DNA from: Desulfobulbaceae bacterium BRH_c16a
GTDB taxonomy: Bacteria > Desulfobacterota > Desulfobulbia > Desulfobulbales > Desulfocapsaceae
DNA: 47,075 nucleotides
Direction: 5' to 3'
NCBI GenBank assembly: GCA_000961725.1
Contig: LADS01000017.1
Location: 1 to 47,075, forward strand
Position numbers and translations under genes: made by a program
The notes under the pieces: model-generated
What the model was told of the DNA's origin: nothing
What the model saw: only the letters and a program-made list of their open reading frames with translations
Database searches by the model: none
Shown here: positions 35,301-47,075 of the stretch, piece after piece
Layout of the letters: each line of letters starts with the position of its first letter
Position numbering within the stretch: position 1 is the stretch's first letter

Positions 35301-35513
35301 TCTCCTGGCAATACGACGAAATACCGTGGATTGCCGGTAATGGGTGAAATCGACGGTTTCCTGGTCGTAGAGCATTTTCAGAATCTGCTCAAAGGCCTCT
35401 CGCTCCCCTGCACCCAGGAGTATGAAGGTTTCGGCCACACCGCGATCTTCCTGAAAATCGGGATGCGTCAAATCAAATGATGCAACATCATCATGGTTCT
35501 GGTGGTTATCCAT
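32319..35513 (-). CDS. CheR-PAS-histidine kinase-receiver hybrid protein
   Basis: This 1,064-residue cytoplasmic protein has, in order: a CheR-type methyltransferase domain (about 40-310, SAM motif VWVPGCSTGEEVYS); a PAS-like region; a long coiled coil (about 470-560) of NEELQSTNEEL-type repeats; a PAS domain (about 570-690); HisKA with VGTLAGGIAHDFNNIL; HATPase_c (N box INAKQAM, G boxes EGEGIEEKYLG and RRLGRGLGL); and a C-terminal receiver (RVLVVDDEEM, acceptor Asp in LVITDLTIP). There is no CheB domain. It lies downstream of the CheB-CheR protein on the same strand (181 bp gap). CheR usually methylates receptor glutamates, but here the target is unknown. Confidence 0.88.
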   Translation of the reverse strand: MDNHQNHDDVASFDLTHPDFQEDRGVAETFILLGAGEREAFEQILKMLYDQETVDFTHYRQSTVFRRIARRMALCKKSSFAGYLNHLIADTEELNLLHRDLLLYFTEFFRDPQIFETLKTEIFPLLVENRTVKTPIRVWVPGCSTGEEVYSLAICLYEFLEANKLEVTGQFFGTDLVGDHIVAARSALYSEKIEKHVSPERLERFFDKTPKGYRVIKHIREMCVFATQDITQDPPFPNIDLLSCRNLLIYFDTTFQDTVIPLFHFALKPSGFLLLGTSETLGRFPQLFNQVDKRQNIFSKRILANKQPYRFPVSSSIFNQRIRSQAEPVLRTKHSEAGDLNRKIEQVLLERYAPPGVLVDVNLQIRQFQGRTSRYLDPSTGEASLKLSRMAGHSLMPDLYVAIEEAKRDRKTVRKRNIPFSYGEEQNTIDISVIPVQNEGDSEVFFLLLFEEEKESVRMAVDQAGLDALEDSAKDRELLELRRELMATKEYLQTIIEEKDDVNQELWTANEEVQSTNEELQSVNEELEAAKEELESTNEELIALNEELHLKNTELLESEARFKMVMHQSPAAIEIYDLDGLLIGVNRAFEELWRAPAAHMVNTFNILKNSEADRARLLPYAQRAYGGETVLVPEYRLAPAGGIDGIGGSEGQWLSTRIYPLKDSGGRVKNIVIAVEDVTARKRMEGDLLKIHKLESVGTLAGGIAHDFNNILMGLFGNLTIAKNELPKDHPAMEHLNDAQKSMSRATRLTQQLLIFAKGGNPVREGVSIATLVEEVVRFDLSGSNVKPVFDIASDLWVAEVDKGQIQQVFSNLTINAKQAMADGGHLFITMKNAAVGEGEIAELAAGNYVKVIVRDEGEGIEEKYLGQIFDPYFTTRRLGRGLGLATTYSIIKKHGGCITVESTPAVGTTFSLYLPVSKAELSHAADVGTGEKAGGAAELRVLVVDDEEMICKVTSRFLERAGYLVETVLGGTEAIASYKRALEAGEPFDLVITDLTIPGGMGGKEVVKRLLELNEGARVIVSSGYAEDPVMANYATYGFCGVAAKPYSREKLLSVVRQALAER

Positions 35514-35694: not shown

Positions 35695-38373
35695 CTAGTC
35701 CCGGCTTGTTGCATCGCCCTTCTTCCCATGCCCTTCCCCGTCGGTCTTTGCCCGGCGGAGGTCGGTAATGTCGATAAAGGTGATAACCGCTCCTTCGATG
35801 ACATTCTCCAGGGTCCGGTAGGGCCGGATGCGCATCTGGAACCAGGTTCCGGCCCGGGTCTGCACCTCGGCGGCCCTGGGGGCCAGGTCGCGCAGCACGG
35901 CCCGGACATCTTCGACAAGATTATCATGGCCGACCAGATTGGAGACGATATGGCCCACGGGTCGGCCGATGTCGCTCTGGATCAGGTTGATCAGCTCGGT
36001 GGTGCCGGGGGTGAAGCGGACAATGTGCAGATTATGATCGACAAAGAGGGTGGCAACTCCGGTGCCGGCAAGGAGGTTGTTCATGTCGTTATTGGCGCGG
36101 GACAGGTCGGCCACCTTGTTTTGCAGTTCGGCGTTGACCGTCGCCAGCTCTTCGTTGACCGATTGCAGTTCTTCCTTCGAGGTTTCCAGTTCTTCGTTGG
36201 TGGACTGCAGCTCCTCGTTTACCGACTGCATCTCCTCATTGGTCGATTTAAGTTCTTCATTGGCGGTTTCCATCTCCTCGAGGGTGCTCTGCAGATATTC
36301 TTCCTTGGTCCGCAGTTCCTGTTCGAGAATGGCAATACGTGCGCTCCCCCCGGTGTCCGGTACAACCGCGGCATCGTCGGTCGCAGGCAACAGCAGGACC
36401 GGGCACTCCTCAAGGACAATCAGGAATATCCCCGGCAGGATTGCACCATCCGGCCCTGTCGCCGGGCGCACATGAAGATTGACAGTATTGAAATCGCCAT
36501 TGGTCTTCACCTGCAGCCCCGGATGGCTCACCGTTCCCTGCTGGGTCATCACCCGGTATAATGCGGCAGTCAGGGCGGGACGGAGTCCTTCCCGGGCCAT
36601 GGCGAGAATGTTCATGCCCGCGTCGCCGCTGGCCGGTTCCAGGTATCTGCCGGTACGTCCATAGATATGCAGGATTTCGCCGCGGCTGTTGACGAGCACG
36701 CCGACCTGAGCGTAATGGGCAACCAGACTGTGTTCGGTAATCTCACGCAGATTGCTGCGGCAAGCGACTCCGTGTTCCACTCGGGCCACTCGTCCCCGGA
36801 TGGTCGGTGTCGCCAGGGGCGGGACAAAACGGCTCAGGTTCGGGTAAACCGCGCCTGCCAGGTCGGTCTGCCGCCGATATATCTTCTGCTTGCGGTCAAG
36901 CACGACGAACAGCGAACCGAATTCCCCCACCGACTCGGAAGTGCCCAGAAAGAGCATACCGTTCGAATTCAGGGCATAGTGGAAAAGCGGGATGAGCCTT
37001 TTCTGGAGGTCTCTGTTGAGGTAGATCAGCAGGTTACGGCAACTGATCAGATCGATTTTGGAGAAAGGCGGGTCTTTGATCACGTCCTGCTCGGAGAAGA
37101 CCAGCAGGTCGCGGATAATTTTCTGGATACGGTACACGCCGTTTTCCGACTCCAGTAAGAAAAACCGGGACAGCCTTTCGGGGGTGATATCGGTCGCGAT
37201 GCTGGGCGGATAGACCCCGGACCGAGCCTGTTCGATAGCCCGCGGATCGATATCGGTGGCGAAGACCTGGACCTTGAAGGTCGATTTCAATGTTTCCAGA
37301 TGCTCCTGGAGCAAAATGGCGATGGAGTATGCTTCCTCGCCGGAAGCACAGCCGCAGACCCAGACCCGGACCGGTGCTCCGGCCGGTTTGCCGATAAAGA
37401 GTTGCGGGATAACCTGGGTTTCGAGGACGGCGAAGGCATCAGGATCGCGGAAAAAATTGGTCACTCCGATCAGCAGGTCGCGAAAAAGAGCCTGGGCCTC
37501 GGTCGGGGACTGCCGCAAATGGCGGAGATAATCCTCCGCCCGACCGATCTGGTGGACGGCCATGCGCCGTTCGACCCGGCGCACCAGAGTGTTGCGTTTG
37601 TACTGAGAGAAATCGTGGCTGGTGGCGTCGCGCAGCAGGATGCAGATCTTCTTGAGTATTTCGTCTGCACTGGCGGTCGGGGTACTTGTCCGACGGATTT
37701 TGTTGCCGAAGGCATGGGCCGCATAGGCGATGAGCCGGGCCGGCATCTCGGCCGGCGGCAGGATATAATCGACCAGCCCGGTGGCTATGGCGCTGCTCGG
37801 CATTCCGGAAAATTCCGTCGATTCGGGGTTCTGGGCCATGACCATGCCGCCCTCTCCTTTCACCGCGCGTACGCCCAGGGAGCCGTCGCTGCCGGTGCCG
37901 GAGAGGACGATACAGATGGCCCGCTCGTGCTGATCGTGGGCAAGGGATCGGAAGAAGAAGTCGATGGTCATCCGCAACCCGCGGGACACGACGTGTTCCA
38001 ACAGTTGCAGGGAACCGTTCAGAAAGGCCATGTCGTGGTTGGGGGGAATGATGTAGGCGCAGTTGGGCTTCACGACCATCCCATCGGCGACTTCGAATAC
38101 CTTCATGCGGGTGTAGCGTTTAACCAGATCGGAGAGGATGCTTTTATGGTCCGGAGCAAGGTGTTGCACGAGGACAAAGGCCATGCCGGGATCGCCCTCG
38201 GCGGGCATTCCCGAGAAAAATGCCTCGAAGGCCGCCAGCCCCCCGGCGGAAGCGCCGATGCCGACGATGGGGAAAGAAGCGGTGCTGCTCTCTGCATCGT
38301 CAGACGTTTCGACCGGTTCGAGTTCGGCCGGTGCTGCCTGTATCGGCTCTGGCTTTTTCTTCCTTGCTCTCAC
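35695..38373 (-). CDS. CheB-CheR-PAS fusion protein
   Basis: This is 892 residues. A CheB methylesterase domain (about 34-215) has catalytic Ser (GIGASAGGLAAF, Ser42), His (VLVQHLAPDH) and Asp (SGTGSDGSLG). It is followed by a CheR methyltransferase (about 240-510, VWVCGCASGEEAYS). A PAS-like domain precedes a coiled coil (about 660-755) of NEELKSTNEEMQSVNEEL repeats, and a final PAS (about 755-870) ends in a charged tail. These signal proteins often modify receptors or sense nearby signals without other chemotaxis genes. It overlaps the receiver gene by 4 bases (ATGA), so translation is coupled. The sigma54 promoter at 38865-38878 would drive it. Confidence 0.9.
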   Translation of the reverse strand: MRARKKKPEPIQAAPAELEPVETSDDAESSTASFPIVGIGASAGGLAAFEAFFSGMPAEGDPGMAFVLVQHLAPDHKSILSDLVKRYTRMKVFEVADGMVVKPNCAYIIPPNHDMAFLNGSLQLLEHVVSRGLRMTIDFFFRSLAHDQHERAICIVLSGTGSDGSLGVRAVKGEGGMVMAQNPESTEFSGMPSSAIATGLVDYILPPAEMPARLIAYAAHAFGNKIRRTSTPTASADEILKKICILLRDATSHDFSQYKRNTLVRRVERRMAVHQIGRAEDYLRHLRQSPTEAQALFRDLLIGVTNFFRDPDAFAVLETQVIPQLFIGKPAGAPVRVWVCGCASGEEAYSIAILLQEHLETLKSTFKVQVFATDIDPRAIEQARSGVYPPSIATDITPERLSRFFLLESENGVYRIQKIIRDLLVFSEQDVIKDPPFSKIDLISCRNLLIYLNRDLQKRLIPLFHYALNSNGMLFLGTSESVGEFGSLFVVLDRKQKIYRRQTDLAGAVYPNLSRFVPPLATPTIRGRVARVEHGVACRSNLREITEHSLVAHYAQVGVLVNSRGEILHIYGRTGRYLEPASGDAGMNILAMAREGLRPALTAALYRVMTQQGTVSHPGLQVKTNGDFNTVNLHVRPATGPDGAILPGIFLIVLEECPVLLLPATDDAAVVPDTGGSARIAILEQELRTKEEYLQSTLEEMETANEELKSTNEEMQSVNEELQSTNEELETSKEELQSVNEELATVNAELQNKVADLSRANNDMNNLLAGTGVATLFVDHNLHIVRFTPGTTELINLIQSDIGRPVGHIVSNLVGHDNLVEDVRAVLRDLAPRAAEVQTRAGTWFQMRIRPYRTLENVIEGAVITFIDITDLRRAKTDGEGHGKKGDATSRD

Positions 38374-38771
38374 GAGAGACTCCGCTGCCGGGGTTCAAAA
38401 TTTTCATCCACGCGTTCCAGGGCCTTGTTAACAGCGGCGAGCAGCCCGAGCTGGCGCAGCGGTTTTGTGAGGTAATCGGCAGCATGCATGCGAGAACTGA
38501 GTTGCTCGGTTTCCGCGGTGGGATAGGCCGTCATGATAATCACCCGTGTTTCGATGATCCTCCGCCGAACCTCCTGCAGAATATTGATGCCGAAACCATC
38601 GCCGAGAACGATATCGGCAAGTATCAGGTGAAATATTTTCTCATCCATCCTTTCAAGAGCTTCACCATAACTCGCGGCCGTGGTCACATTGTGACCCTCG
38701 GCCGCAAGGAATCGGTAAAAACTGAATCTGATCGATTCTTCATCGTCGAGGATAAGTATATTCGCCTGCAT
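38370..38771 (-). CDS. Stand-alone response regulator receiver
   Basis: This is a 133-residue single receiver domain (ILILDDEESIRFSF, phosphate acceptor Asp53 in LILADIVLGD, Thr in IIMTAY, Lys in YLTKP). AAGGAG before the ATG at 38771 fixes the start. The longer frame from 38834 is not used. Its sequence is close to the receiver of the NtrC-type regulator encoded just upstream (DDEESIR at the same place and a similar ADI segment), which suggests a paralogue sharing the same kinase. It overlaps the CheB-CheR gene by 4 bases. Confidence 0.88.
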   Translation of the reverse strand: MQANILILDDEESIRFSFYRFLAAEGHNVTTAASYGEALERMDEKIFHLILADIVLGDGFGINILQEVRRRIIETRVIIMTAYPTAETEQLSSRMHAADYLTKPLRQLGLLAAVNKALERVDENFEPRQRSLS

Positions 38772-38864
38772 TATATATTCTCCTTGCAGGAGGTTCCTCT
38801 CCTGCATAAGGGGGTTGACTGATATCCGGTTCACCTACGGCCGCATGTTGCCAATAAAATTCAC

Positions 38865-38878
38865 GCAAGTTACATGCC
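38865..38878 (-). promoter_or_regulatory. Sigma54 promoter for receiver-CheB/CheR operon
   Basis: On the minus strand GGCATGTAACTTGC has GG and GC 10 bases apart, with TTGC at -12. It agrees with the consensus TGGCACG-N4-TTGCW at most positions. It lies about 95 bp before the receiver start. A palindromic site sits about 107 bp upstream. Confidence 0.75.
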
Positions 38879-38977
38879 TCCAGTGAAGAAATTCTTTATA
38901 CTCTTATTTTCGTCCATATGACAGACAATTATGGGATTCCCGGCACCCGAGACAAGGATGTACTTGAGATGCAAGAG

Positions 38978-38991
38978 TGTTGCATGCAACA
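38978..38991. promoter_or_regulatory. Palindromic activator site, copy 1
   Basis: TGTTGCATGCAACA is a perfect 14-bp palindrome. Similar sites lie near the other two sigma54 promoters. A second, imperfect half (CTGCAACA) follows at about 39010-39017. It probably binds the NtrC-type regulator encoded next to it. Confidence 0.7.
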
Positions 38992-39026
38992 GAAAGGTGC
39001 AATTTCATGCTGCAACACGTCACACT

Positions 39027-40736
39027 TCACTTTAGCGGAGTATTTTCGGTTATATTGTACCTCTTGATTTTTCGGTACAAAGTAACGCGATCTATCCCTA
39101 ATAACCGGGCGGCTTTTGCTTTATTCCAGGCGGTTTTTTCCAGGGCTTCGAGAATGCCCTGAGAATCGGCCTCCGCATTCTCCAGGGCGGAGTGGTGCGC
39201 GGTTTCCGGCGCAGTCACGAAATCGGACGGCAGATTATCGAAAGTGATAATGTTGCGGTTGCACAGGACAAAGGCGTGCTCCATTATGTGCTCGAGTTCC
39301 CGGACGTTGCCCCGCCAGGGACACTTGAGAAAGGCCTTCAGAACATCCGCCGATATCCCCTCGATGTTTTTTTTGAATTTTGCATTGAAGCCGTTACGGA
39401 AGTGTTCAACCAGCAGCGGTATGTCTTCGCGCCTGTCCCGAAGGGGGGGCAGTTTGATCTCGATCACCTTCAGCCTGTAGTAGAGGTCTTCCCGCAGTTC
39501 GCCGTTACCGACTTTTTCCAGCAGATTTCTGTTCGTTGCCGCAATCAACCGCACATCCACCTTGTTTGGCGCAGAGCTTCCCACCCTTTCGAACTCCCGC
39601 TCTTCGAGGACCCGCAGGAGCTTCAACTGAACCTTGAGCGAGATATCGCCAATCTCGTCGAAAAAGATGGTGCCGCCATCGGCCCGGTGGAATCGCCCGA
39701 TATTGTCCCTGATGGCCCCGGTAAACGCCCCTTTTACATGACCGAAGAGCTCGCTCTCCAACAGACTTTCGGGCAAGGCCGAGCAGTTGACTTTGACCAG
39801 GGCTTTATGACTGCGGTCACCGGAGAGATGCAGCGCTTCGGCGACCAGTTCTTTGCCTGTCCCGCTTTCACCGGTGACGAGAACAGTGGTCTGCACATTG
39901 GTAAGGGACCTTATCAGGGCATACACTTTCTGCATCGGCTCGCTTTTGCCAATGATACGATGAAACTGCCGATGTCCTTTCAGTTCCATTTCGATGTCGG
40001 CCATCTGGGTTTCATCCCGCAACACCAGAACCACCCCCCGCGGCAGCCCCTGGAGGCTGAGGAGCGGATAGGTCCTGATATTGATCACCCGGCTGATGCG
40101 GCCGGCGGAGAGGCATTCGATCCGGTCGACCTCAACAGGCCGGCCGCCGACAAGAGCTTCAGCAAGAATCTCCGCGCATTTGCCGCCGCACATCTGCGGC
40201 AGAGAAGCAAAAGGCCTGCCCAGGTCCTCGTTGGAAAAGCCGAACATGGTGATAGCCGCCTCGTTAAACTCAAGCACCGCCAGATCCTTGTCGACAGTGA
40301 CGATGGCATCCTTGACACTCCGGAAGATGGCCTCGAGGTTGGTTCGGTATCTTTCCTTTTCTTCATGAACCACCTTATACTTCAAGGCACTCCTGGCCCC
40401 GTGCAGCAACGACTCCTGGTTGATCGGCTTGGGAATATAGTCGAACGCGCCCAGACGAATGGCGTCGGCAGCAGTCTCGACGCCGGGATCGCCGGTGACC
40501 ATGATAACCGGACACGTCAACCCCTTTGCCTTGATTTCGCGAAGAATTTCGATCCCGGTGCCGTCTTCGAGAATAATGTCGGCAAAAACCACATCGAAGC
40601 TGGTATCGTTTATCCGCGCCAGAGCCTCACGGCAGCTTCCCGCCGTCACGACGAAATGGCCGGCCGCCCGCAGAAATCTTTCGAAGGTATACCTGATCGA
40701 CTCCTCATCGTCGATGACCAGGATTCTCGCACTCAC
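39027..40736 (-). CDS. NtrC-family sigma54-dependent response regulator
   Basis: This is a 569-residue activator: receiver (1-120, Asp53 in VVFADIILEDG), PAS (about 125-250), AAA+ ATPase with Walker A GESGTGKE, GAFTGA (the sigma54-contact loop), and Walker B TIFFDEIGD, then a Fis-type HTH (about 530-565, NKAKAARLLGIDRVTLYRKI). It starts ATG at 40736, overlapping the histidine kinase stop by 4 bases. It should be phosphorylated by that kinase, bind the TGTTGCATGCAACA sites and drive the three GG-N10-GC promoters. The link to those sites rests on position and repetition, not on tests. Confidence 0.93.
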   Translation of the reverse strand: MSARILVIDDEESIRYTFERFLRAAGHFVVTAGSCREALARINDTSFDVVFADIILEDGTGIEILREIKAKGLTCPVIMVTGDPGVETAADAIRLGAFDYIPKPINQESLLHGARSALKYKVVHEEKERYRTNLEAIFRSVKDAIVTVDKDLAVLEFNEAAITMFGFSNEDLGRPFASLPQMCGGKCAEILAEALVGGRPVEVDRIECLSAGRISRVINIRTYPLLSLQGLPRGVVLVLRDETQMADIEMELKGHRQFHRIIGKSEPMQKVYALIRSLTNVQTTVLVTGESGTGKELVAEALHLSGDRSHKALVKVNCSALPESLLESELFGHVKGAFTGAIRDNIGRFHRADGGTIFFDEIGDISLKVQLKLLRVLEEREFERVGSSAPNKVDVRLIAATNRNLLEKVGNGELREDLYYRLKVIEIKLPPLRDRREDIPLLVEHFRNGFNAKFKKNIEGISADVLKAFLKCPWRGNVRELEHIMEHAFVLCNRNIITFDNLPSDFVTAPETAHHSALENAEADSQGILEALEKTAWNKAKAARLLGIDRVTLYRKIKRYNITENTPLK

Positions 40737-42463
40737 TGTTCACCTCCCGCCACGCCGGTATCAGCCGCAAACTCTAAAATGACACGGGTAAATTCGCCTT
40801 CTTCGCTCTCGAAACTCAATCGTCCGCCATGATCCTCTATGATCTTTTTGGTGATATTCAAACCAAGGCCGGTCCCTTTGCCGAATGGCTTGGTGGAAAA
40901 AAACTGTTTGGTCAGCATGGGGATCTCATGAGCGGGAATGCCCACTCCCCGATCGCAAAAGACGATGCGAACATGAGGAAGATCGTCGGCAGTATATTTC
41001 TGAGCGGTGATCTCCAAGCGTTTCTCTTTGTGGCTCCCCGGATACTTCTCGTTCAAGGCATAGCGCGCATTGTTGATGATATTGATAAAACACTGCTGGA
41101 TCTGTTGCAGGTTGGCATGGATCAGCGGGAGATCGCCAGGAAAATCAACCTGCAGATCTATGCCTTCCTTGCGGATTTGTGCCTGGGTAAGAATAATCGA
41201 TTCCTGCAGGATGATCGGGATGCTGGTCAGCATTTTCGCTTCCCGCCCGTCGCGGGCATAGGCGAGAAGGGTCTTGACGATACGGCCGACGCGATCCCCT
41301 TCCTTGACAATGCGCTCTCCGATGTCTTTTTCCATGCTCTCGGGGCGGCACTCGTTTATCAGTATCTGGCCATAGTTGATAATGCCGGTGATGGGATTGT
41401 TGATTTCATGGGCCACGCCGGAAGCCAACTCCCCCAGGGAGGCCATATGTCCGGCCTGCATCGCTTCCGCCTGCATCGCCATCTTTTCGGTAATATCGCT
41501 GACCAGCAGAAGTACACTGGTAACTTTTTTGCGTTCTTTGATCGGGAAAGCCCGCAGGTCGAGCAGGGCTCCATTGTGGGTGGCGACGGCGACTTCCTTT
41601 TGTCCTGATTCGAAACAACGCTTTATCGGACAGTCGAGGGAAAGAGCGCCTCGATCATGGATCAATGCATAACAGTATTGTCCGGCCGGATCGGATTCTC
41701 TCTTATGCAGACGCACAGTATCTTCATTGTTCGTCCACAATACTTCCATCTCCGGAGAAAACAGGATCAAGGTATCGGTAATCGCATTCAACAGCGCATG
41801 GAATTCCTGGGAGAGTTTCCTGAATTTTTTTTCATTGACAAAGAGCTCATCGGTACGCTCCTCCACCCTTCTTTCCAGTTCGTCATGGATCTTGACGAGT
41901 TTTTTCTCAACATCCCTCCGAACCGAAATGTCGGTTACCGAGGTCCTGCACAGCTCAGTGCCATCGCCATTGTGCGCCAGGATGCTGTCCAGCTGTAAAT
42001 AAAATTTCTGGCTGTTCGGTTTAATGAAACGAAGTTCACAGGTCTGCTGTTGATGTGTGGTGAAAACCTCGTGGAGGTGAGACCGCAACCCGGCGCGGTC
42101 CTCCGCTGCAACATAACCTCCGAGAAGAGTATTTATCAGGCAGGTTCTGTCCCGGTCAAGCTGGCGGGAAAAGGTGAGATTTGTTTCCTGGATCAGGCCA
42201 TCTCGGCCCATGGTAATATATCCTACCGGCGCAAAGTTGTAGAGGTCGGCATATTTTTCGAGAGATTCGTTGAGGAGCTCCTGAGTATTGAAGAGTTCTT
42301 CGTTCTGCATCTCCAGTTCGATCTGATGCACCTGAAGATCGTGGACCAAAGCATCCTGGTCGGATGGGATGCGGCTCCTGCCGACGGCGTCTTTGCTGCC
42401 GCTTGTTGCGGCCTGGCGACGCAGTTCGGCCAAACGCTGCTCTGCTGTAATCCGGTTTATCAT
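40733..42463 (-). CDS. PAS-domain sensor histidine kinase
   Basis: This is about 576 residues with no membrane helix, so it is cytoplasmic. An N-terminal helical part is followed by a PAS (about 70-190), a coiled coil, a second PAS (about 225-350) with a cysteine cluster (GQYCYALIHD and DCPIKRCFES), and HisKA with SLGELASGVAHEINNP (the His is phosphorylated). HATPase_c follows (N-box INNARYAL, G boxes DRGVGIP and GKGTGLGLNI). I start at ATG 42463 behind GGTGGGG. An earlier start at 42544 would overlap the palindromic sites. The cysteine cluster may sense a redox or metal signal (inference). It overlaps the regulator gene by 4 bases. Confidence 0.88.
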   Translation of the reverse strand: MINRITAEQRLAELRRQAATSGSKDAVGRSRIPSDQDALVHDLQVHQIELEMQNEELFNTQELLNESLEKYADLYNFAPVGYITMGRDGLIQETNLTFSRQLDRDRTCLINTLLGGYVAAEDRAGLRSHLHEVFTTHQQQTCELRFIKPNSQKFYLQLDSILAHNGDGTELCRTSVTDISVRRDVEKKLVKIHDELERRVEERTDELFVNEKKFRKLSQEFHALLNAITDTLILFSPEMEVLWTNNEDTVRLHKRESDPAGQYCYALIHDRGALSLDCPIKRCFESGQKEVAVATHNGALLDLRAFPIKERKKVTSVLLLVSDITEKMAMQAEAMQAGHMASLGELASGVAHEINNPITGIINYGQILINECRPESMEKDIGERIVKEGDRVGRIVKTLLAYARDGREAKMLTSIPIILQESIILTQAQIRKEGIDLQVDFPGDLPLIHANLQQIQQCFINIINNARYALNEKYPGSHKEKRLEITAQKYTADDLPHVRIVFCDRGVGIPAHEIPMLTKQFFSTKPFGKGTGLGLNITKKIIEDHGGRLSFESEEGEFTRVILEFAADTGVAGGEQ

Positions 42464-42525
42464 CTGGCACCCCACCTTTTTTTCCTGATCGTACCCATGG
42501 CAATTGCCCCAACATTTTCTTGAAG

Positions 42526-42571
42526 TGTAACATGCAACAGGCATAAGCGTAACGTTTTTGTTGCATGCAAC
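42526..42571. promoter_or_regulatory. Palindromic activator sites, copy 2
   Basis: GTTGCATGCAAC is a perfect palindrome at 42560-42571. A partial site TGTAACATGCAACA lies at 42526-42539. Another half-site, GCATGCAAC, is at 42602-42610. They lie 100-150 bp before the sigma54 promoter at 42674. Confidence 0.7.
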
Positions 42572-42673
42572 GGTCTTTTTATGACAGGGAGGTTTGTTCC
42601 GGCATGCAACGCATACGATATCTCACTTAAATCTCTCCATAATTATTGGGACGACAGGCATCTCACCGCCTCG

Positions 42674-42687
42674 GGCACAAGACTTGC
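42674..42687 (+). promoter_or_regulatory. Sigma54 promoter for the ytxH-like operon
   Basis: GGGCACAAGACTTGCG contains GG-N10-GC and the full TTGC element. It matches TGGCACG-N4-TTGCW well. The first gene starts at 42785, about 100 bp downstream. Confidence 0.8.
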
Positions 42688-42784
42688 GTAGAGAATAGCG
42701 GAATACGAGACCTGCCGACAGCAATGGGCTTTGGGCCGGAAAGACTCAGCTGTAATAAAATTAAATAAATCGGGAGAAACATCC

Positions 42785-43165
42785 ATGATCATCAAAGATT
42801 TTATCGATCGAGTTCGCCATGCGCGGATCGATCGCGAGAATGCCGCACGACGCAATAAAGCCGGAATGCTGGCGCTCGGTGTTTCCATCGGCTGCACTGT
42901 CGGGGCGGTGGCCGGAGTTCTTTTCGCTCCCCGGGCCGGCAAGGAGACACGTGACGATATCACCCGGCGCGGCAGCGAAACCTGGGAAAAAGTCAAAGAC
43001 AATGTTTCCGTCAGTGGCCATCGCCTGGTTCATGCCATCGAGGAGAAAGGAGCCTGCTTATGCACCGCCGCCGGGAAAGGTGTCGATGCAGCCAAAGAGT
43101 CGCTTCAGGATCCCCCCGCTACAGCTGAAAAAACAGATGCAAATAAAGCTGATACCGGAAAGTAG
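42785..43165 (+). CDS. YtxH-family protein
   Basis: This 126-residue protein has a hydrophobic N-terminal segment (about 28-48) followed by the family core GVLFAPRAGKETRDDITRRG. It has a helical tail with a Cys pair (CLC). YtxH proteins are small general-stress proteins in Firmicutes and appear in deltaproteobacteria, with no known biochemical activity. GGGAGAA lies just before the ATG. The next gene is a YtxG-like protein, as in the Bacillus ytxG-ytxH pair, which supports a shared role. The operon is predicted to be under the sigma54 promoter at 42674. Confidence 0.75.
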   Translation: MIIKDFIDRVRHARIDRENAARRNKAGMLALGVSIGCTVGAVAGVLFAPRAGKETRDDITRRGSETWEKVKDNVSVSGHRLVHAIEEKGACLCTAAGKGVDAAKESLQDPPATAEKTDANKADTGK

Positions 43166-43177
43166 AGGGAATCGCCC

Positions 43178-43519
43178 ATGGAAGGATATATCACCTACAG
43201 TCAGCTGGGACTGCTGCTCATGTTTCTGATAGTGGCCGCCGTCGGCGGCTATGCGATTCTGACGATGAGAAACGTCAATGCCGCGGTAAAGGATATCGGG
43301 ATAATTCTCAAAGAAAATCAGGAAGCCCTGGGCCGGGCAATACCCAATATCGCCATAGCCTCGGAAAATGTGGCGGCGATCACCCATGACTTGCGGACAG
43401 GATTCAGCGAAACGAGCAAGGCCATGGAAACCGCCGACCAGATCGCTTCGTATGCCGTGGTTATCGGGGAAACGGCCAAAGCCCTCGCCGGACTCTTTAC
43501 CTCCGGCAGGAAATCTTAA
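43178..43519 (+). CDS. YtxG/DUF948-like membrane-anchored protein
   Basis: This is a 113-residue protein with one N-terminal membrane helix (about 8-30) and a long helical rest (RNVNAAVKDIGIILKEN...), in the style of DUF948/YtxG. It starts 12 bp after the ytxH-like gene, so the two are co-transcribed. A helical rod near the membrane is predicted. Its function is unknown, and the family name is a cautious match based on layout and neighbour. Confidence 0.55.
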   Translation: MEGYITYSQLGLLLMFLIVAAVGGYAILTMRNVNAAVKDIGIILKENQEALGRAIPNIAIASENVAAITHDLRTGFSETSKAMETADQIASYAVVIGETAKALAGLFTSGRKS

Positions 43520-43662
43520 ACGGTCGCCACTGTTCCGCCCCATACCGCTAAACCGCTAAACCACTCTCTCCGGTCTGGGGCGGGAAAATCCGGCAGCCGC
43601 GTGCGCAACCGGAAAACGTACCATTCATTGCACCATAGCCAAATCTCCACGAGGCACCAGCC

Positions 43663-44820
43663 ATGACTACCATACATATCTCCTCTAAGATTACCGAATG
43701 GCGGAAGATGGACCACCCTTTTTCCTCCCTTCGATTACCGATATTCCTTCTCGTTGCAGGGGTGTTGCTGTTTCTGCTCGTTCTCTCTCGTCCGGTTGCC
43801 GCCGGTCCGACGAGCGATGAATACATTCGCGGCTATGCCGCCGCAACCCTGCAACGGGATTTTCAAATCACCGCCGATTCTCTGAAAGTTAAGAATGGCG
43901 TCATTTATCTTCATGGGCTGGAGGCCTCGGACGTAATCCACGACAGGATAAAAACTTCTCTCGCCGTAATCGAAGGGGTGCAAAAGGTTGTGGTGACCAG
44001 GGAAGGCGACGTCGCAGCTCAGGTTAAACCTCCTGAATTCACGCCGGAAGTCAATGTCTTCCTGCCACGTGATTTGCTTTTCAATTCTCTGCTGGCAGAT
44101 CCCCGCTGGCCGCATTTCTCGGTTTCGTATCAGCACCACCAGAATAATGACCGGCTTGAGAATATAGGTTCCGCCAACTTTGGTGAGACCTTCAGCATCT
44201 ATCGCTTCGGCGGTCCATGGGGCTCCCTCATGGAAGTCGGTCTTCACGCCGGTGTTTTCTCCATTTTCGATCTGGCCGCCGAGTCGCGTGATCTGGTCAA
44301 TGCCGATTACTTTGTCGCCTTTCCTCTCTCGCTGAAGAAAAACAATTTCTCGGCAATGGCCAGGATCTTTCATCAAAGCTCGCATCTGGGTGACGAATTT
44401 CTCCTCAGCGACCGGACCCAGCAGCGTATCAATCTGAGCTATGAAGGCTTTGACACCCTCCTCTCCTATCATTTTCCACTTGGTTTTCGCCTCTACGGAG
44501 GCGGCGGCTATCTGTTCGATCGCGATCCGTCCGATCTGAAACCGTGGATTGCCCAGTCGGGGCTTGAGTTCAAAAGTCACACCGCCTGGTGGAACGGAGC
44601 CCTCAGGCCGATTGCGGCTTTAGATATCCAGAGCAGGGAAGAAAGCGAGTGGCGGGCGGATGTGTCGCTGCGGGCTGGGGTCCAGTTTGAGAATCCGGAC
44701 TTCCTGAGCCGTAAGCTGAAGTTGATGTTCGAATATTACAAAGGCAGATCACCCAACGGTCAGTTTTATATACGCGATGTAGAGGAATATTTTGGTATCG
44801 GTCTCCATTTTTTCCTGTGA
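43663..44820 (+). CDS. BON domain and DUF1207-type outer-membrane protein
   Basis: This is a 385-residue protein. A signal peptide (membrane stretch about 27-45, cleavage near PVAAGP) leads into a BON domain (about 50-110, a fold that binds phospholipid or membrane). The rest (about 115-385) is DUF1207-like, with FLPRDLLFNSLLADPRWPHF and a beta-barrel-like pattern of aromatic strands to the end (GIGLHFFL). The gene follows the YtxG-like gene after 143 bp, in the same direction. Location in the outer membrane is inferred from the signal and strand pattern. GAGG precedes the ATG. A start at the MDHPF (43708) is possible. Confidence 0.75.
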   Translation: MTTIHISSKITEWRKMDHPFSSLRLPIFLLVAGVLLFLLVLSRPVAAGPTSDEYIRGYAAATLQRDFQITADSLKVKNGVIYLHGLEASDVIHDRIKTSLAVIEGVQKVVVTREGDVAAQVKPPEFTPEVNVFLPRDLLFNSLLADPRWPHFSVSYQHHQNNDRLENIGSANFGETFSIYRFGGPWGSLMEVGLHAGVFSIFDLAAESRDLVNADYFVAFPLSLKKNNFSAMARIFHQSSHLGDEFLLSDRTQQRINLSYEGFDTLLSYHFPLGFRLYGGGGYLFDRDPSDLKPWIAQSGLEFKSHTAWWNGALRPIAALDIQSREESEWRADVSLRAGVQFENPDFLSRKLKLMFEYYKGRSPNGQFYIRDVEEYFGIGLHFFL

Positions 44821-44881
44821 TGTGCGGGTAGCGTAACCCTGTAGCGAAGCGTGACTTGCAACAAAAAACAAGCAACAGTTC

Positions 44882-44895
44882 TGTTGCACGCAACA
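44882..44895. promoter_or_regulatory. Palindromic activator site, copy 3
   Basis: TGTTGCACGCAACA is a palindrome apart from the central pair. Half-sites TTGCAACA and AAGCAACAG lie at about 44858-44876. It is about 91 bp before the sigma54 promoter at 44980, as with the other two. Confidence 0.7.
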
Positions 44896-44979
44896 CTTTG
44901 CCGATCGAGCCAGAACCTGACACATGAATCAACCACCTGACATTTCACCATAAAATAACAAACAGCTCTCTGCCGGGAA

Positions 44980-44993
44980 GGTATGAACCTTGC
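44980..44993 (+). promoter_or_regulatory. Sigma54 promoter for the FecR/DUF6600-like gene
   Basis: GGTATGAACCTTGC has GG-N10-GC and the TTGC at -12. It matches TGGCACG-N4-TTGCW less well at -24 than the others. Transcription would start near 45005, just before a stem-loop. Confidence 0.7.
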
Positions 44994-45009
44994 TCTAAAG
45001 AAGTTTGAT

Positions 45010-45050
45010 GCAGGACTTGCCGCCTCACGCTGTGCGGCGGCAAGTCCTGC
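45010..45050 (+). promoter_or_regulatory. Strong stem-loop at the 5' end of the mRNA
   Basis: GCAGGACTTGCCGCC (45010-45024) pairs perfectly with GGCGGCAAGTCCTGC (45036-45050), leaving an 11-base loop. It should begin a few bases after the transcription start and 23 bp before the start codon. It could stabilise the mRNA or act as an attenuator. No T-tract follows, so it is not a plain terminator. Confidence 0.7.
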
Positions 45051-45072
45051 CGAAAATACAAGGGAGTAAATA

Positions 45073-47075
45073 ATGATTATGACAAAAAAGTTCGTCGGTA
45101 TCCTGGTACCTTTCTGTCTCGCTTTCGTTTCCTTCGCCTCGGCCCGTTCTCAACCGCCACCACCAGGCGCAGAGGATATCCTGGTAGGGCATATATCGCA
45201 CGTTGAGGGACAACTGCTGCGCTATGTCCCGGAGGAAAGCGATTGGGTGGCAACGGTGCAGGACGCCCCCTTCGGCCTGGATGACGCTTTATATTCAGAT
45301 GAAGATTCCAAAGCCGAGTTCATCTTCCCCAACGACACCTTGTTGCGAACAGGGGGCAGTACCCAGATTCAACTCATCACACTCAGGCGGGATGTTACCG
45401 AGGCCGACGTGGCCTCCGGCGTCGCACGGTTTTACAACAGGAGTGAAAACGGCGTCATAAAGATCACAACCGCCTTCGGTTATGTGATCGCCGGTGGTGC
45501 AACTACCTTCGACCTCTATGTGGGCGATGAGTCCGTCGAAGTCATCACCCTGAATGGAAGAGTCGATTTTGTTCACGGCGAAAATCTACTGAGATACGAC
45601 GTGATCTCAGGTTCGTCCATCGTCGCCGACAGCACCAGGGTGACCTCGTTTGAAGCCAACGTCGATGCCGGTTGGGATGACTGGAACATGGACCGTGATC
45701 GGCTCTGGCGAAAATGGCTGGAAGCGTCCGGCGATTCAGGCAGATATCTGCCAACAACCCTGCGCGACAAAGCGTATGCCCTCGAAGTAAACGGCCGCTG
45801 GGAAGAGGTGAGATATGAAGGTGCCAGCCGCCGGTTCTGGCGGCCCACCAGTGTCGCCAGGGGATGGTCGCCGTTCACCGCCGGCCGATGGACTGTTTAC
45901 CACGGCGACAACACCTGGATCCCGGATGAGCAGTTTGGCTATGTCACCCATCACTACGGCAACTGGATATACACGGGCGATCACTGGTATTGGGCTCCGC
46001 CGGTGGCAAGAGTGCAGGTAGACGTCAGCCCGTTCCTGGCAGTTGGACTCGGCTGGTATCCCGGCCGAGTCGGGTGGATCCATACAGGGATCACTATCGG
46101 CTGGGTGCCACTCGCCTGGAATGAACACTATTATACCCAACGCCGCTGGGGATCGCGGACAACCGTCGTCAACACTACCAATATCAACCAGATCAACATC
46201 AACATCAGCAATTACAATTATCTCGACAGGGCCGTTGTCGTCAATCGGGACAATTTCTACAGTCGCAGAAATTACCGGGACTTGAGGCTCGCCAATATTT
46301 CCAGGGATACCATTTCACAAAACTATCAAGCGGCGCCCGTCGTAAATGACAGGGTGATCGACAATTACAAGACGCTCAAAGGGCGTCATAACTTCAGCAA
46401 TGTCGATGTGGATCGCAAGCCTCATAAAGTGGTCCGCGACAGGATCCTACACAATGAACAACGGTCCCGGCAGGCTCAAAAGGATAATGCCGAAGCACTT
46501 TTGCAAAACATGCACCAAAGCAAACAAGGCCGGATTGACCGCAATGCATCGATCGTCCAACCGAAAGTCGGCAACAAGCTGGTAAGACTTGAAGAGGTAT
46601 CCAAACCAAGATTGCCGGATGAGTTCCGGCAAAAAGAGCTTAAAAAAACCACCAGACAGGTTCTGCCTGCTCAGGATGTCAAAGTGCAGGACGCCACAGG
46701 AAGTCGGGAGAAACAACGCCCAGCGATACAGCAGGAAAAGAACAGCAAAAAGGAACGGCAGACTGAACAACAACCAGCCGTCCAGCAGCAGAAGAACAGC
46801 AAAAAGGAACGACAGGTCGAACAGCAGCCAGCCGTCCAGCAGCAGAAGAACAGCAAAAAAGAACGACAGGTCGAACAGCAGCCAGCCGTCCAGCAGCAGA
46901 AGAACAGCAAAAAAGAACGACAGGTCGAACAGCAGCCAGCCGTCCAGCAGCAGAAGAACAGCAAAAAAGAACGACAGGTCGAACAGCAGCCAGCCGTCCA
47001 GCAGCAGAAGAACAGCAAAAAAGAACGACAGGTCGAACAGCAGCCAGCCGTCCAGCAGCAGAAGAACAGCAAAAA
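45073..47075 (+). CDS. FecR-domain/DUF6600-like secreted protein with 18-residue repeats (cut by window edge)
   Basis: The frame is open for 667 codons to the window end. A signal peptide (MIMTKKFVGILVPFCLAF) leads into a FecR-like region (about 60-180: AEFIFPNDTLLRTGGSTQI and then SVEVITLNGRVDFVHG). A Trp/Tyr-rich part follows (about 200-350, GWDDWNMDRDRLW and WIPDEQFGYV) typical of DUF6600 proteins. Residues about 560 to the end are charged Gln/Lys-rich 18-residue repeats. AGGGAG precedes the ATG. The strong stem-loop and sigma54 promoter lie upstream. Its role is unknown; the protein probably sits at the cell surface or in the periplasm, and the tail may extend beyond the window. Confidence 0.8.
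   Translation, partial: MIMTKKFVGILVPFCLAFVSFASARSQPPPPGAEDILVGHISHVEGQLLRYVPEESDWVATVQDAPFGLDDALYSDEDSKAEFIFPNDTLLRTGGSTQIQLITLRRDVTEADVASGVARFYNRSENGVIKITTAFGYVIAGGATTFDLYVGDESVEVITLNGRVDFVHGENLLRYDVISGSSIVADSTRVTSFEANVDAGWDDWNMDRDRLWRKWLEASGDSGRYLPTTLRDKAYALEVNGRWEEVRYEGASRRFWRPTSVARGWSPFTAGRWTVYHGDNTWIPDEQFGYVTHHYGNWIYTGDHWYWAPPVARVQVDVSPFLAVGLGWYPGRVGWIHTGITIGWVPLAWNEHYYTQRRWGSRTTVVNTTNINQININISNYNYLDRAVVVNRDNFYSRRNYRDLRLANISRDTISQNYQAAPVVNDRVIDNYKTLKGRHNFSNVDVDRKPHKVVRDRILHNEQRSRQAQKDNAEALLQNMHQSKQGRIDRNASIVQPKVGNKLVRLEEVSKPRLPDEFRQKELKKTTRQVLPAQDVKVQDATGSREKQRPAIQQEKNSKKERQTEQQPAVQQQKNSKKERQVEQQPAVQQQKNSKKERQVEQQPAVQQQKNSKKERQVEQQPAVQQQKNSKKERQVEQQPAVQQQKNSKKERQVEQQPAVQQQKNSK
46738..47075 (+). 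repeat. 54-bp tandem repeats coding for KKERQVEQQPAVQQQKNS
   Basis: Six complete 54-bp units begin at 46738, 46792, 46846, 46900, 46954 and 47008, with a seventh cut by the window edge. The first is divergent, the others are almost identical at DNA level, which suggests recent expansion by slippage. Each encodes 18 residues in one frame. Confidence 0.92.

What the first reader, a model, noticed from the sequence alone, without database searches (positions are those of the whole stretch)
38771..45075. A candidate sigma54 regulon with its own palindromic activator sites
Seen: an overlapping histidine kinase and NtrC-type activator (GAFTGA present) are flanked by three GG-N10-GC promoters at 38865, 42674 and 44980. 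Each has a TGTTGCAYGCAACA-type palindrome (38978, 42560, 44882) 91-109 bp upstream, the usual enhancer distance. Known: NtrC-type activators bind such dyads and contact sigma54. Inference: the pair controls a receiver-CheB/CheR unit, a YtxH/YtxG/BON-DUF1207 unit and a FecR/DUF6600 protein. I know of no described regulon of this composition.
Basis: partly seen in the sequence, partly recalled or inferred. Interest (0 to 1): 0.8.

Follow-up and report, generated by a model that had tools for sequence, protein, structure and literature searches.

The report
A conserved sigma-54 envelope-stress regulon
This stretch encodes a sensor-activator pair predicted to switch on at least six sets of cell-surface, slime and stress-protection genes in its genome through a recurring, often doubled DNA site at a nearly fixed distance from the gene start signals, and the same arrangement recurs beside related activators in many relatives of sulfate-reducing bacteria, where it would be a likely undescribed stress response open to testing.

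Summary
The only three GTTGCNNGCAAC dyads of the window lie 92-109 bp (centre to -24 GG) from three sigma-54-type promoters around an overlapping histidine kinase/NtrC-type regulator.

A model of the enhancer, built from six own-genome sites, finds 16 further sites at E<=0.01 in three same-genus genomes that carry the regulator's ortholog; 16 of 16 have a sigma-54 promoter 98-115 bp downstream (background 2.2%). Of 57 genomes searched, hits at E<=0.01 occur in the four with the ortholog and in one other, beside a paralogous regulator. In 16 of 20 loci with a regulator of about 65% identity or more, a near-exact dyad stands 96-117 bp before such a promoter; one genome has 17 composite sites. 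Predicted targets: a stand-alone receiver (most often conserved), YtxH/DUF1207, DUF6600, PRC-barrel/BON, exosortase-linked exopolysaccharide genes, and in other genomes CsbD, SYLF, Hsp20, FtsH, OmpA and a sigma-32-type factor.

Best reading: an undescribed NtrC-type regulon for envelope and general stress. Binding, phosphorylation, signal and expression are untested. The mechanism is of a known kind; the regulon was not found in the papers searched.

The parts
40733..42463 (-). Histidine kinase: PAS domains, HisKA, HATPase; phospho-acceptor His in AHEINNP; no membrane helix by hydropathy (likely cytoplasmic sensor)
   Evidence: Pfam; H-box and hydropathy; start codon (the ORF could also start at 42544)
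39027..40736 (-). NtrC-type response regulator: receiver - PAS - AAA+ (GAFTGA) - Fis-type HTH (NKAKAARLLGIDRVTLYRK)
   Evidence: Pfam; motifs; clade of 21 regulators
38978..38991 (-). Proximal enhancer site TGTTGCATGCAACA for the receiver-CheB/CheR promoter
   Evidence: training site of model R1
39011..39024 (-). Weak distal enhancer site TGTGACGTGTTGCA, 33 bp upstream of the proximal one
   Evidence: 5 mismatches to the dyad, about 12% of random places do as well
38864..38880 (-). Sigma-54-type promoter GAGGCATGTAACTTGCG
38370..38771 (-). Stand-alone receiver (REC), 45% identical to the regulator's own receiver, phospho-acceptor Asp kept; predicted phosphate sink or relay
   Evidence: Pfam; BLAST; dyad plus promoter-like element upstream of 10 of 12 linked REC genes
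35695..38373 (-). CheB-CheR-PAS fusion, overlapping REC by 4 bp (same predicted transcript)
   Evidence: Pfam; ORFs
32319..35513 (-). CheR - PAS - histidine kinase - receiver fusion, next gene on the same strand (possible operon end)
   Evidence: Pfam
42526..42539 (+). Distal enhancer site TGTAACATGCAACA
42549..42554 (+). Extra half-site GTAACG between the pair (such a half-site is at -10 in 5 of 6 own sites)
42559..42572 (+). Proximal enhancer site TGTTGCATGCAACG, between the divergent HK-RR and YtxH units
42672..42688 (+). Sigma-54-type promoter CGGGCACAAGACTTGCG
42785..43165 (+). YtxH-like small membrane protein
   Evidence: Pfam PF12732
43178..43519 (+).
43663..44820 (+). DUF1207 protein with a hydrophobic N-terminal helix
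   Evidence: Pfam PF06727 E 3e-85
44850..44863 (+). Distal enhancer site CGTGACTTGCAACA, 32 bp upstream of the proximal one
44872..44877 (+). Extra half-site GCAACA between the pair
44882..44895 (+). Proximal enhancer site TGTTGCACGCAACA
44978..44994 (+). Sigma-54-type promoter AAGGTATGAACCTTGCT
45073..47075 (+). DUF6600 protein, cut off by the contig end inside a 54-bp tandem repeat
   Evidence: Pfam PF20245; repeats

Best explanation
The kinase (40733-42463) and NtrC-type regulator (39027-40736) are likely a two-component system whose regulator is predicted to bind palindromes, often paired, and by looping to activate sigma-54 promoters about 110 bp downstream, switching on an envelope-maintenance, exopolysaccharide and general-stress regulon. 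Shown by sequence: the proximal dyads (TGTTGYRYGCAACR), their nearly fixed distance to -24/-12 promoters at six places in this genome, a distal partner 32-34 bp upstream in most same-genus sites, and the same dyad-promoter spacing beside orthologous regulators in other families. Inferred: the phosphorylated regulator occupies both sites as two dimers and assembles the AAA+ ring that remodels sigma-54 polymerase; the kinase senses an unknown cytoplasmic cue through its PAS domains; the regulon-controlled stand-alone receiver, a sibling of the regulator's own receiver, drains phosphate from the kinase as feedback; in some members the regulon feeds a cascade through a sigma-32-type factor or a second sigma-54 activator.
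For: Model R1 of the enhancer (six own sites; no promoter included) finds 16 sites at E<=0.01 in G012, G013 and G006; 16 of 16 have a sigma-54 promoter 98-115 bp on, background 2.24%, p about 4e-27. In 57 genomes, R1 hits at E<=0.01 fall in the four genomes with the ortholog (79-100% identity; best in any other genome 53%) plus one site in G042, 3.3 kb from a paralogous regulator. In 20 loci with a regulator of about 65% identity or more: 33 near-exact dyads in 319 kb, against 3 in 671 kb of 54 loci with remote or fragmentary regulators; 21 of 29 sigma-54 promoters (score >=27) within 500 bp of those dyads start at 96-117, in 16 of the 20 loci. Dyad-plus-promoter pattern: 52 matches against 4 for the reversed pattern in 19 genomes. 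Distal partner with <=3 mismatches in 13 of 21 same-genus sites, background 0.65%. Regulator clade 100/100 support, 17 of 21 with a near-exact dyad in the fetched stretch. HTH nearly identical in the six clade members compared. Stand-alone receiver has dyad plus promoter-like element 108-113 bp on in 10 of 12.
Against: No binding, phosphotransfer, rpoN or expression data. The 16 sites are partly orthologous to the training sites, so they are not 16 independent events. Three of 8 near-exact own-genome palindromes have no sigma-54 promoter at 90-120 bp. The distal partner is not universal: 8 of 21 same-genus sites have 5 or more mismatches, and outside the genus only 4 of 12 have 3 or fewer and 6 of 12 have 4 or fewer (background 2.9%). 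Four of 21 clade members show no near-exact dyad in the stretch held: L188 and L192 with flanks, L182 with the kinase cut off, L331 with short flanks; 6 of 19 genomes gave no composite match, those of L182, L187, L188, L189, L192 and L193, and the 4 control matches are in G057 (1) and G060 (3, as many as its true matches). G076 has 3 composite sites but no regulator at E<=1e-150 (79% complete). Of six Nitrospirota/Nitrospinia orthologs only L198 shows a degenerate pair. In 7 of the 10 receiver promoters the -12 GC is GA or GT. Sixteen of 40 downstream proteins scanned had no Pfam hit, so 'stress regulon' rests on the rest and on recalled roles of those families.
Confidence: 0.82

Rival explanations
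1. The palindromes are bound by a different sigma-54 activator (for example the receiver-less PAS-AAA-Fis protein of the exopolysaccharide cluster on C63), and the neighbouring kinase-regulator pair only happens to sit beside them.
For: The genome encodes many such activators (67 matches to the C63 one); the C63 activator gene itself lies behind an enhancer, so it could be autoregulated.
Against: Among the seven genomes searched, the C63 activator's ortholog (91%) is found only in G012; best matches in G006 and G013 are 59% and 40% although both have the enhancers. Its recognition helix differs. Near-exact dyads track the regulator clade through several families.
Confidence: 0.1
2. The regulator binds these sites mainly as a repressor or autoregulator of its own operon, and the sigma-54 promoters are driven by something else.
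For: One pair lies 63-109 bp upstream of the kinase start codon, between divergent units, and sites just upstream of the kinase recur in L181, L183, L202 and L203.
Against: The sites keep a nearly fixed distance to sigma-54 promoters, at loci far from the kinase too; GAFTGA, needed to contact sigma-54 (recalled), is intact.
Confidence: 0.05
3. The sites and promoters coincide by chance, or the palindrome is a dispersed repeat.
For: GG-N10-GC alone is very common (518 in the window); single composite matches occur at about chance level in other genomes of the phylum.
Against: 16 of 16 against a 2.2% background; 52 against 4 reversed-pattern matches; by eye, flanks outside the elements differ at most sites (the C35/C11/42559 type sites share more, as copies would).
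Confidence: 0.02

Closest known systems
NtrBC-type sigma-54 two-component control (glnA arrangement; geometry recalled)
   Same: Receiver-AAA+(GAFTGA)-Fis regulator, adjacent kinase, dyads about 110 bp upstream of -24/-12, in many sites two of them about three helical turns apart
   Different: Regulator carries a PAS domain between receiver and AAA+; falls below the NCBIfam NtrC cut-off (387 of 558.6 bits); targets are envelope and stress genes, not nitrogen
ZraSR/ZraP envelope-stress system (recalled; seen only in a search listing)
   Same: Sigma-54-dependent two-component control of envelope-stress genes
   Different: ZraR model 381 of 760 bits, ZraS 117 of 479; this kinase has no membrane helix by hydropathy; regulon here is multi-promoter (6 in this genome, 17 composite matches in G061)
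Desulfovibrio vulgaris DVU3305 ('general stress') and DVU3381/DVU1419 ('envelope stress') regulons (PMC4641369, PMC3333781; passages read)
   Same: Sigma-54 response regulators assigned to stress in a sulfate reducer
   Different: DVU3305 has GAFSGA, with UspA-type targets and a Lon-domain partner; the regulon described here was not seen in the passages; sequence orthology was not tested
PrsK/PrsR PEP-CTERM regulon (PMC1569441, passages and section 7 read)
   Same: Sigma-54 two-component control linked to exosortase and exopolysaccharide genes; activator motif upstream of -24/-12
   Different: PrsR model 342 of 502.6 bits; its motif 1 ends in TTTACA with a mean spacer of 62.8 nt; PrsK is a transmembrane kinase
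RpoS / sigma-B general stress regulons (target lists recalled)
   Same: Target families (CsbD, BON/OsmY-like, YtxH, SYLF, Hsp20, SOD) resemble theirs
   Different: Control is by sigma-54 and an activator, not by a dedicated sigma-70-family factor; no RpoS above the family cut-off in 10 genomes

Membership tests
NtrC-type sigma-54 two-component regulon | Regulator with receiver, AAA+ with GAFTGA, and Fis-type HTH | tested here: met
   Pfam; GAFTGA, Walker A, Asp53 and Lys103
NtrC-type sigma-54 two-component regulon | Adjacent histidine kinase with His and ATPase domains | tested here: met
NtrC-type sigma-54 two-component regulon | -24/-12 promoters with upstream dyads at enhancer distance | tested here: met
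NtrC-type sigma-54 two-component regulon | Two activator sites per promoter | tested here: inconclusive
   clear distal partner in 13 of 21 same-genus sites and 4 of 12 outside
NtrC-type sigma-54 two-component regulon | Phosphorylation-dependent, ATP-driven activation of sigma-54 polymerase | not testable with these tools
   needs purified proteins or mutants
NtrC (nitrogen regulation) | NCBIfam NtrC curated cut-off | tested here: not met
   387.2 of 558.6 bits
ZraSR | NCBIfam ZraR and ZraS curated cut-offs | tested here: not met
   381.4 of 760; 117.1 of 479
AtoSC | NCBIfam AtoC and AtoS curated cut-offs | tested here: not met
   396.3 of 714; 177.2 of 646
PrsK/PrsR (PEP-CTERM) | TIGR02915 PrsR cut-off | tested here: not met
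   342.1 of 502.6
PrsK/PrsR (PEP-CTERM) | Motif 1 ending TTTACA, mean spacer 62.8 nt to motif 2 | tested here: not met
   sites here are TGTTGCRYGCAACR, promoter starting 96-117 from the site start
RpoS-type general stress response | An RpoS ortholog directing the regulon | tested here: not met
   0 of 10 genomes above the TIGR02394 cut-off; promoters are sigma-54 type
RpoS-type general stress response | Induction by many stresses or starvation | not testable with these tools
   no expression data
DVU3305-type stress system | Sequence orthology to DVU3305 | not tested
   only passages of PMC3333781 and PMC4641369 read

The most novel reading that the evidence does not exclude
In sulfate-reducer relatives that show no canonical RpoS, a sigma-54 two-component system is the general stress response: one NtrC-type regulator fires up to 17 or more enhancer-borne promoters for envelope, chaperone, redox and slime genes, passes the signal on to a sigma-32-type factor and further sigma-54 activators, and is reset by a regulon-encoded stand-alone receiver that drains phosphate from the kinase.
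Probability: 0.3. Interest if true: 0.8.

Novelty: new member of a known kind. Interest (0 to 1): 0.6.

Why it matters
How anaerobes such as sulfate reducers organise a broad stress response when no canonical RpoS is detected is, to my knowledge, little studied. This finding names the likely regulator, its DNA sites to the base, and predicted targets in a dozen genomes or so (13 of 19 searched have composite matches), and it reaches cultivated Desulfobulbus: D. rhabdoformis has recognisable sites near the regulator, D. alkaliphilus has the regulator without them. It ties small envelope and stress proteins of unclear role (YtxH, DUF1207, DUF6600, DUF3300, CsbD, SYLF, BON, PRC-barrel) to exosortase-linked exopolysaccharide, and suggests a testable feedback design (a receiver controlled by its own sibling).

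Tried and rejected
C63 sigma-54 activator as the binder: rejected, no ortholog in G006 and G013, which have the enhancers. PrsR/PEP-CTERM, NtrC, ZraR, AtoC identity: rejected on family cut-offs. Chance: rejected. Whole-phylum scan as a census: of 395 genomes 24 match, but only G000, G076, G112 and G147 have two or more matches; most single ones look like chance (dyads such as GTTGCCGGCAAC; the reversed pattern also rings), so I draw no census from it; one single match, G416, does have a 73% regulator. Six Nitrospirota/Nitrospinia orthologs (L196-L201): no near-exact dyad; only L198 has a degenerate pair 33 bp apart. Weak R1 hits (E 0.01-1): 8 of 29 rows, in 8 genomes, lie within 7 kb of a regulator paralogue on the same contig, which made me look at the paralogues; as single matches they are not significant. 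Structure prediction, PDB and Rfam were not used: they would not bear on DNA binding.

Limits of my scoring: the sigma-54 weights are my own, from the recalled consensus. In one search three of 16 sites (L071 +11594, L071 -8007, L072 -7950) were placed by extrapolating a truncated model match by 3-5 bases; the first does not land on a dyad and was left out of the 21 sites. Control set B includes L223, a 79% regulator fragment. Set A leaves out L180 and L190 because they are the same contigs as L071 and L070; L331 came later. In one search the weak 29% receiver match in L195 was left out. The 40 proteins are my choice from the ORFs.

Literature: searches. Read: PMC1569441 passages and section 7; PMC4641369 passages; PMC3333781 passages; PMC9850573 passages; PMC12316311 passages; PMC3162934 abstract and outline; all others only as listings. 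Motifs printed as figure logos cannot be found by text search.
Full report
WHAT WAS CLAIMED AND WHAT IS THERE. All of this is in the sequence. Centre-to-GG distances are 106.5, 108.5 and 91.5 bp.

Upstream of each palindrome lies a partner of form TGTRACRYGCAACA, at 33, 33 and 32 bp (39011-39024, 42526-42539, 44850-44863). Scored against TGTTGCNNGCAACA, the second and third are clear (2 and 3 mismatches) and the first is weak (5). Over 21 same-genus sites, 13 have a partner with at most 3 mismatches (background 0.65%), 6 more have 5 (12% of random places do as well), one has 6 and one 8; outside the genus 4 of 12 have at most 3 and 6 of 12 at most 4 (background 2.9%). So the pair is a common but not universal feature. 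An extra GYAAC half-site stands 10 bp upstream of the proximal dyad in 5 of 6 own sites. Two dyads three helical turns apart, about 110 bp upstream of the promoter, is the arrangement recalled for NtrC sites at glnA.

THE OWN GENOME. The 14-mer with up to 2 mismatches was searched in the 6.5-Mb genome. Eight places match with at most one mismatch: the three here, C63:1066, C63:9063, C26:39198, C33:79497 and C65:93001. Both C63 sites have a strong sigma-54 promoter at 109-110 bp; so has C35:197406, a 2-mismatch place found through its paired neighbour. C26, C33 and C65 have none at 90-120 bp. C63 carries a receiver-less sigma-54 activator, a chain-length-type protein, an ATPase, a tyrosine kinase and PrsT behind the first enhancer, and an export-type protein, an outer-membrane protein and an exosortase behind the second. 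PrsT is just above its family cut-off (314.6 of 312.2 bits) and the exosortase above the general EpsH cut-off; the chain-length, ATPase, export and XrtA-specific models are below theirs. C35 carries two PRC-barrel proteins, a three-BON protein, a CheB protein and an Fe superoxide dismutase; whether all five share a transcript is not shown.

TEST OF THE GEOMETRY. A sequence-only model (R1) of the 59-bp enhancer was built from the six own sites, without promoter sequence. Searched in 57 genomes, it gives at E<=0.01: own 6, G012 8, G013 5, G006 3, G042 1, and none in the other 52 (stricter filters apply above 40 genomes, so weak sites may be lost). The regulator's ortholog is present at 79-84% identity in G012, G013 and G006 (G013 has a second, 366-residue partial match at 70%); the best in any other of the 57 is 53%. 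All 16 sites in those three genomes have a sigma-54 promoter (score >=25) starting 98-115 bp downstream of the proximal site; random positions in the same stretches do so in 2.24% of trials. Many of these sites are orthologous to the training sites, so they are not 16 separate events, but the promoter was not part of the model.

BEYOND THE GENUS. A scan of GTDB species genomes with the regulator found 241 relatives, of which the best 80 (78 distinct loci) were kept. L180 and L190 are the G013 and G012 contigs, which puts Desulfobulbaceae bacterium S18.Bin011 and Desulfobacterales bacterium GWB2_56_26 in the window's genus. Regulators of about 65-84% identity come from Desulfobulbus alkaliphilus, D. 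rhabdoformis, Desulfobulbaceae, Syntrophobacteraceae, Desulfobacteraceae, Desulfarculales and records named only Deltaproteobacteria, Proteobacteria or bacterium; those of 56-60% from Nitrospirota and Nitrospinia. In 20 non-redundant loci with a regulator of about 65% or more there are 33 near-exact dyads in 319 kb, against 3 in 671 kb in 54 control loci; of 29 promoters (score >=27) within 500 bp of the 33 dyads, 21 start between 96 and 117, spread over 16 of the 20 loci. In the control loci no such promoter lies within 500 bp of a dyad. A tree of 61 regulators puts the window's regulator and those of about 65-84% identity into one clade of 21 (100/100); 17 of 21 have a near-exact dyad in the fetched stretch. 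The four without are L182, L188, L192 and L331. The HTH (NKAKAARLLGIDRVTLYRKIKRY) is nearly invariant in the six clade members compared.

GENOME-WIDE REGULONS ELSEWHERE. The pattern dyad - 83-110 bp - GGNAN7TGC was searched in 19 genomes (20 asked; that of L195 is not held): 52 matches, reversed-pattern control 4 (G057 1, G060 3); 13 of 19 genomes match; the Syntrophobacteraceae genome G061 has 17. I chose 40 downstream proteins from these and related loci and scanned them against Pfam; 24 had a hit. They include CsbD (3), BON (3), DUF3300 (2), Ysc84/SYLF, Hsp20, YfdX, desulfoferrodoxin, OmpA, a phospholipase-D-type protein, FtsH, a holin-X/DUF883-like cluster (DUF883 below its cut-off), a bacterial PH domain, a cNMP-rhodanese protein, a MauE/DoxX protein, ferredoxin, rubrerythrin, a sigma-70-family factor and another receiver-less sigma-54 activator. 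The sigma factors behind SYLF-like genes in L307 and L313 are above the sigma-32 subfamily cut-off (261 and 255 of 241 bits). Operon membership of the more distant ones is inferred from position only. In a wider scan of 395 genomes of the phylum, only the own genome and three of one other family (G076, G112, G147) have two or more matches; the rest are single and mostly look like chance. G076 shows no regulator at E<=1e-150, but it is only 79% complete.

THE TARGET CONSERVED MOST OFTEN is the stand-alone receiver. Of 12 receiver genes linked to the regulator, 10 have an upstream dyad (<=2 mismatches) with a -24/-12-like element 108-113 bp on; in three the -12 is GC, in six GA, in one GT. L181 and L188 do not. 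The receiver is 45% identical to the regulator's own receiver and keeps its Asp. A sibling receiver under the regulator's control suggests phosphate drain from the kinase; this is inference.

WHO BINDS. Co-occurrence and the clade point to this regulator. The activator on C63 is excluded as the general binder, because G006 and G013 have no ortholog of it. Paralogous regulators of 43-48% identity in the order lie on the same stretch as similar pairs (31-33 bp apart) in 5 of 36 stretches scanned (L084, L160, L161, L162, L163); in L084 and L161, read by eye, FtsH and a cytochrome c/iron-sulfur/NrfD operon are next to them. The DNA specificity may therefore be a trait of a wider subfamily.

WHAT IT MOST LIKELY DOES. 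Shown: the genes, the sites, the spacing and the recurrence. Inferred: kinase to regulator phosphotransfer, cooperative binding, sigma-54 activation, receiver feedback, a stress signal. The target families are, from recalled knowledge, those of envelope maintenance and general stress regulons. No RpoS model passes its cut-off in 10 of these genomes, which leaves room for this system to fill that role, but does not show it.

KNOWN OR NEW. The mechanism is NtrC-type control and the system is filed as a new member of that kind. It is not NtrC, ZraR, AtoC or PrsR by family cut-offs. Text searches for the palindrome and for this mix of target families found no description (the one paper with a palindrome variant is a plant-gene study seen as a listing); logos in figures cannot be searched. 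Sigma-54 has been proposed as a controller of the bacterial exterior (PMC3162934, abstract), and a few stress-type sigma-54 regulators are reported in D. vulgaris (PMC4641369, PMC3333781, passages). This regulon fits that theme but was not seen there.

Noticed in passing
window 46729-47075: A 54-bp tandem repeat (6.4 copies, 96% match) in the DUF6600 gene ends the contig, so the protein is cut off and the contig probably stopped in the repeat.
   Followed up: partly
L021 about 10570-10780 (own C35), L110 3574-3689, L112 4881-5726: Remnants of the histidine kinase (in L112 a 283-residue part) lie beside the enhancers of the PRC/BON unit and of a second YtxH/DUF1207 unit in G012: the regulon seems to have spread by copying the divergent kinase-target region.
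   Followed up: partly
L084 6152-16996, L161 5119-17876: Paralogous kinase-regulator pairs next to FtsH and a cytochrome c/iron-sulfur/NrfD operon (named by eye), with paired palindromes 31-33 bp apart; in L084 the two sites lie 142 and 173 bp before a sigma-54 promoter, in L161 no promoter scored.
   Followed up: partly
L183, L184, L186, L191, L202, L203 upstream of the receiver gene: The receiver's promoter has GA in place of the -12 GC in all six, at 111-113 bp from the dyad: a possible weak or altered sigma-54 promoter.
   Followed up: no
G000 C49 and C71: The two own-genome contigs give regulator matches with identical scores and lengths (contamination estimate 6%), which suggests a duplicated or strain-variant stretch in the assembly.
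   Followed up: no
L307 15434-16426 and L313 3788-4741: A sigma-32-type factor behind SYLF-like genes and the enhancer: a possible sigma-54 to sigma-32 cascade.
   Followed up: partly
window 35695-38373 and 32319-35513: CheB-CheR-PAS and CheR-PAS-kinase-receiver fusions beside the receiver; further CheB-CheR proteins are present at related loci (L111, L117, L187).
   Followed up: no
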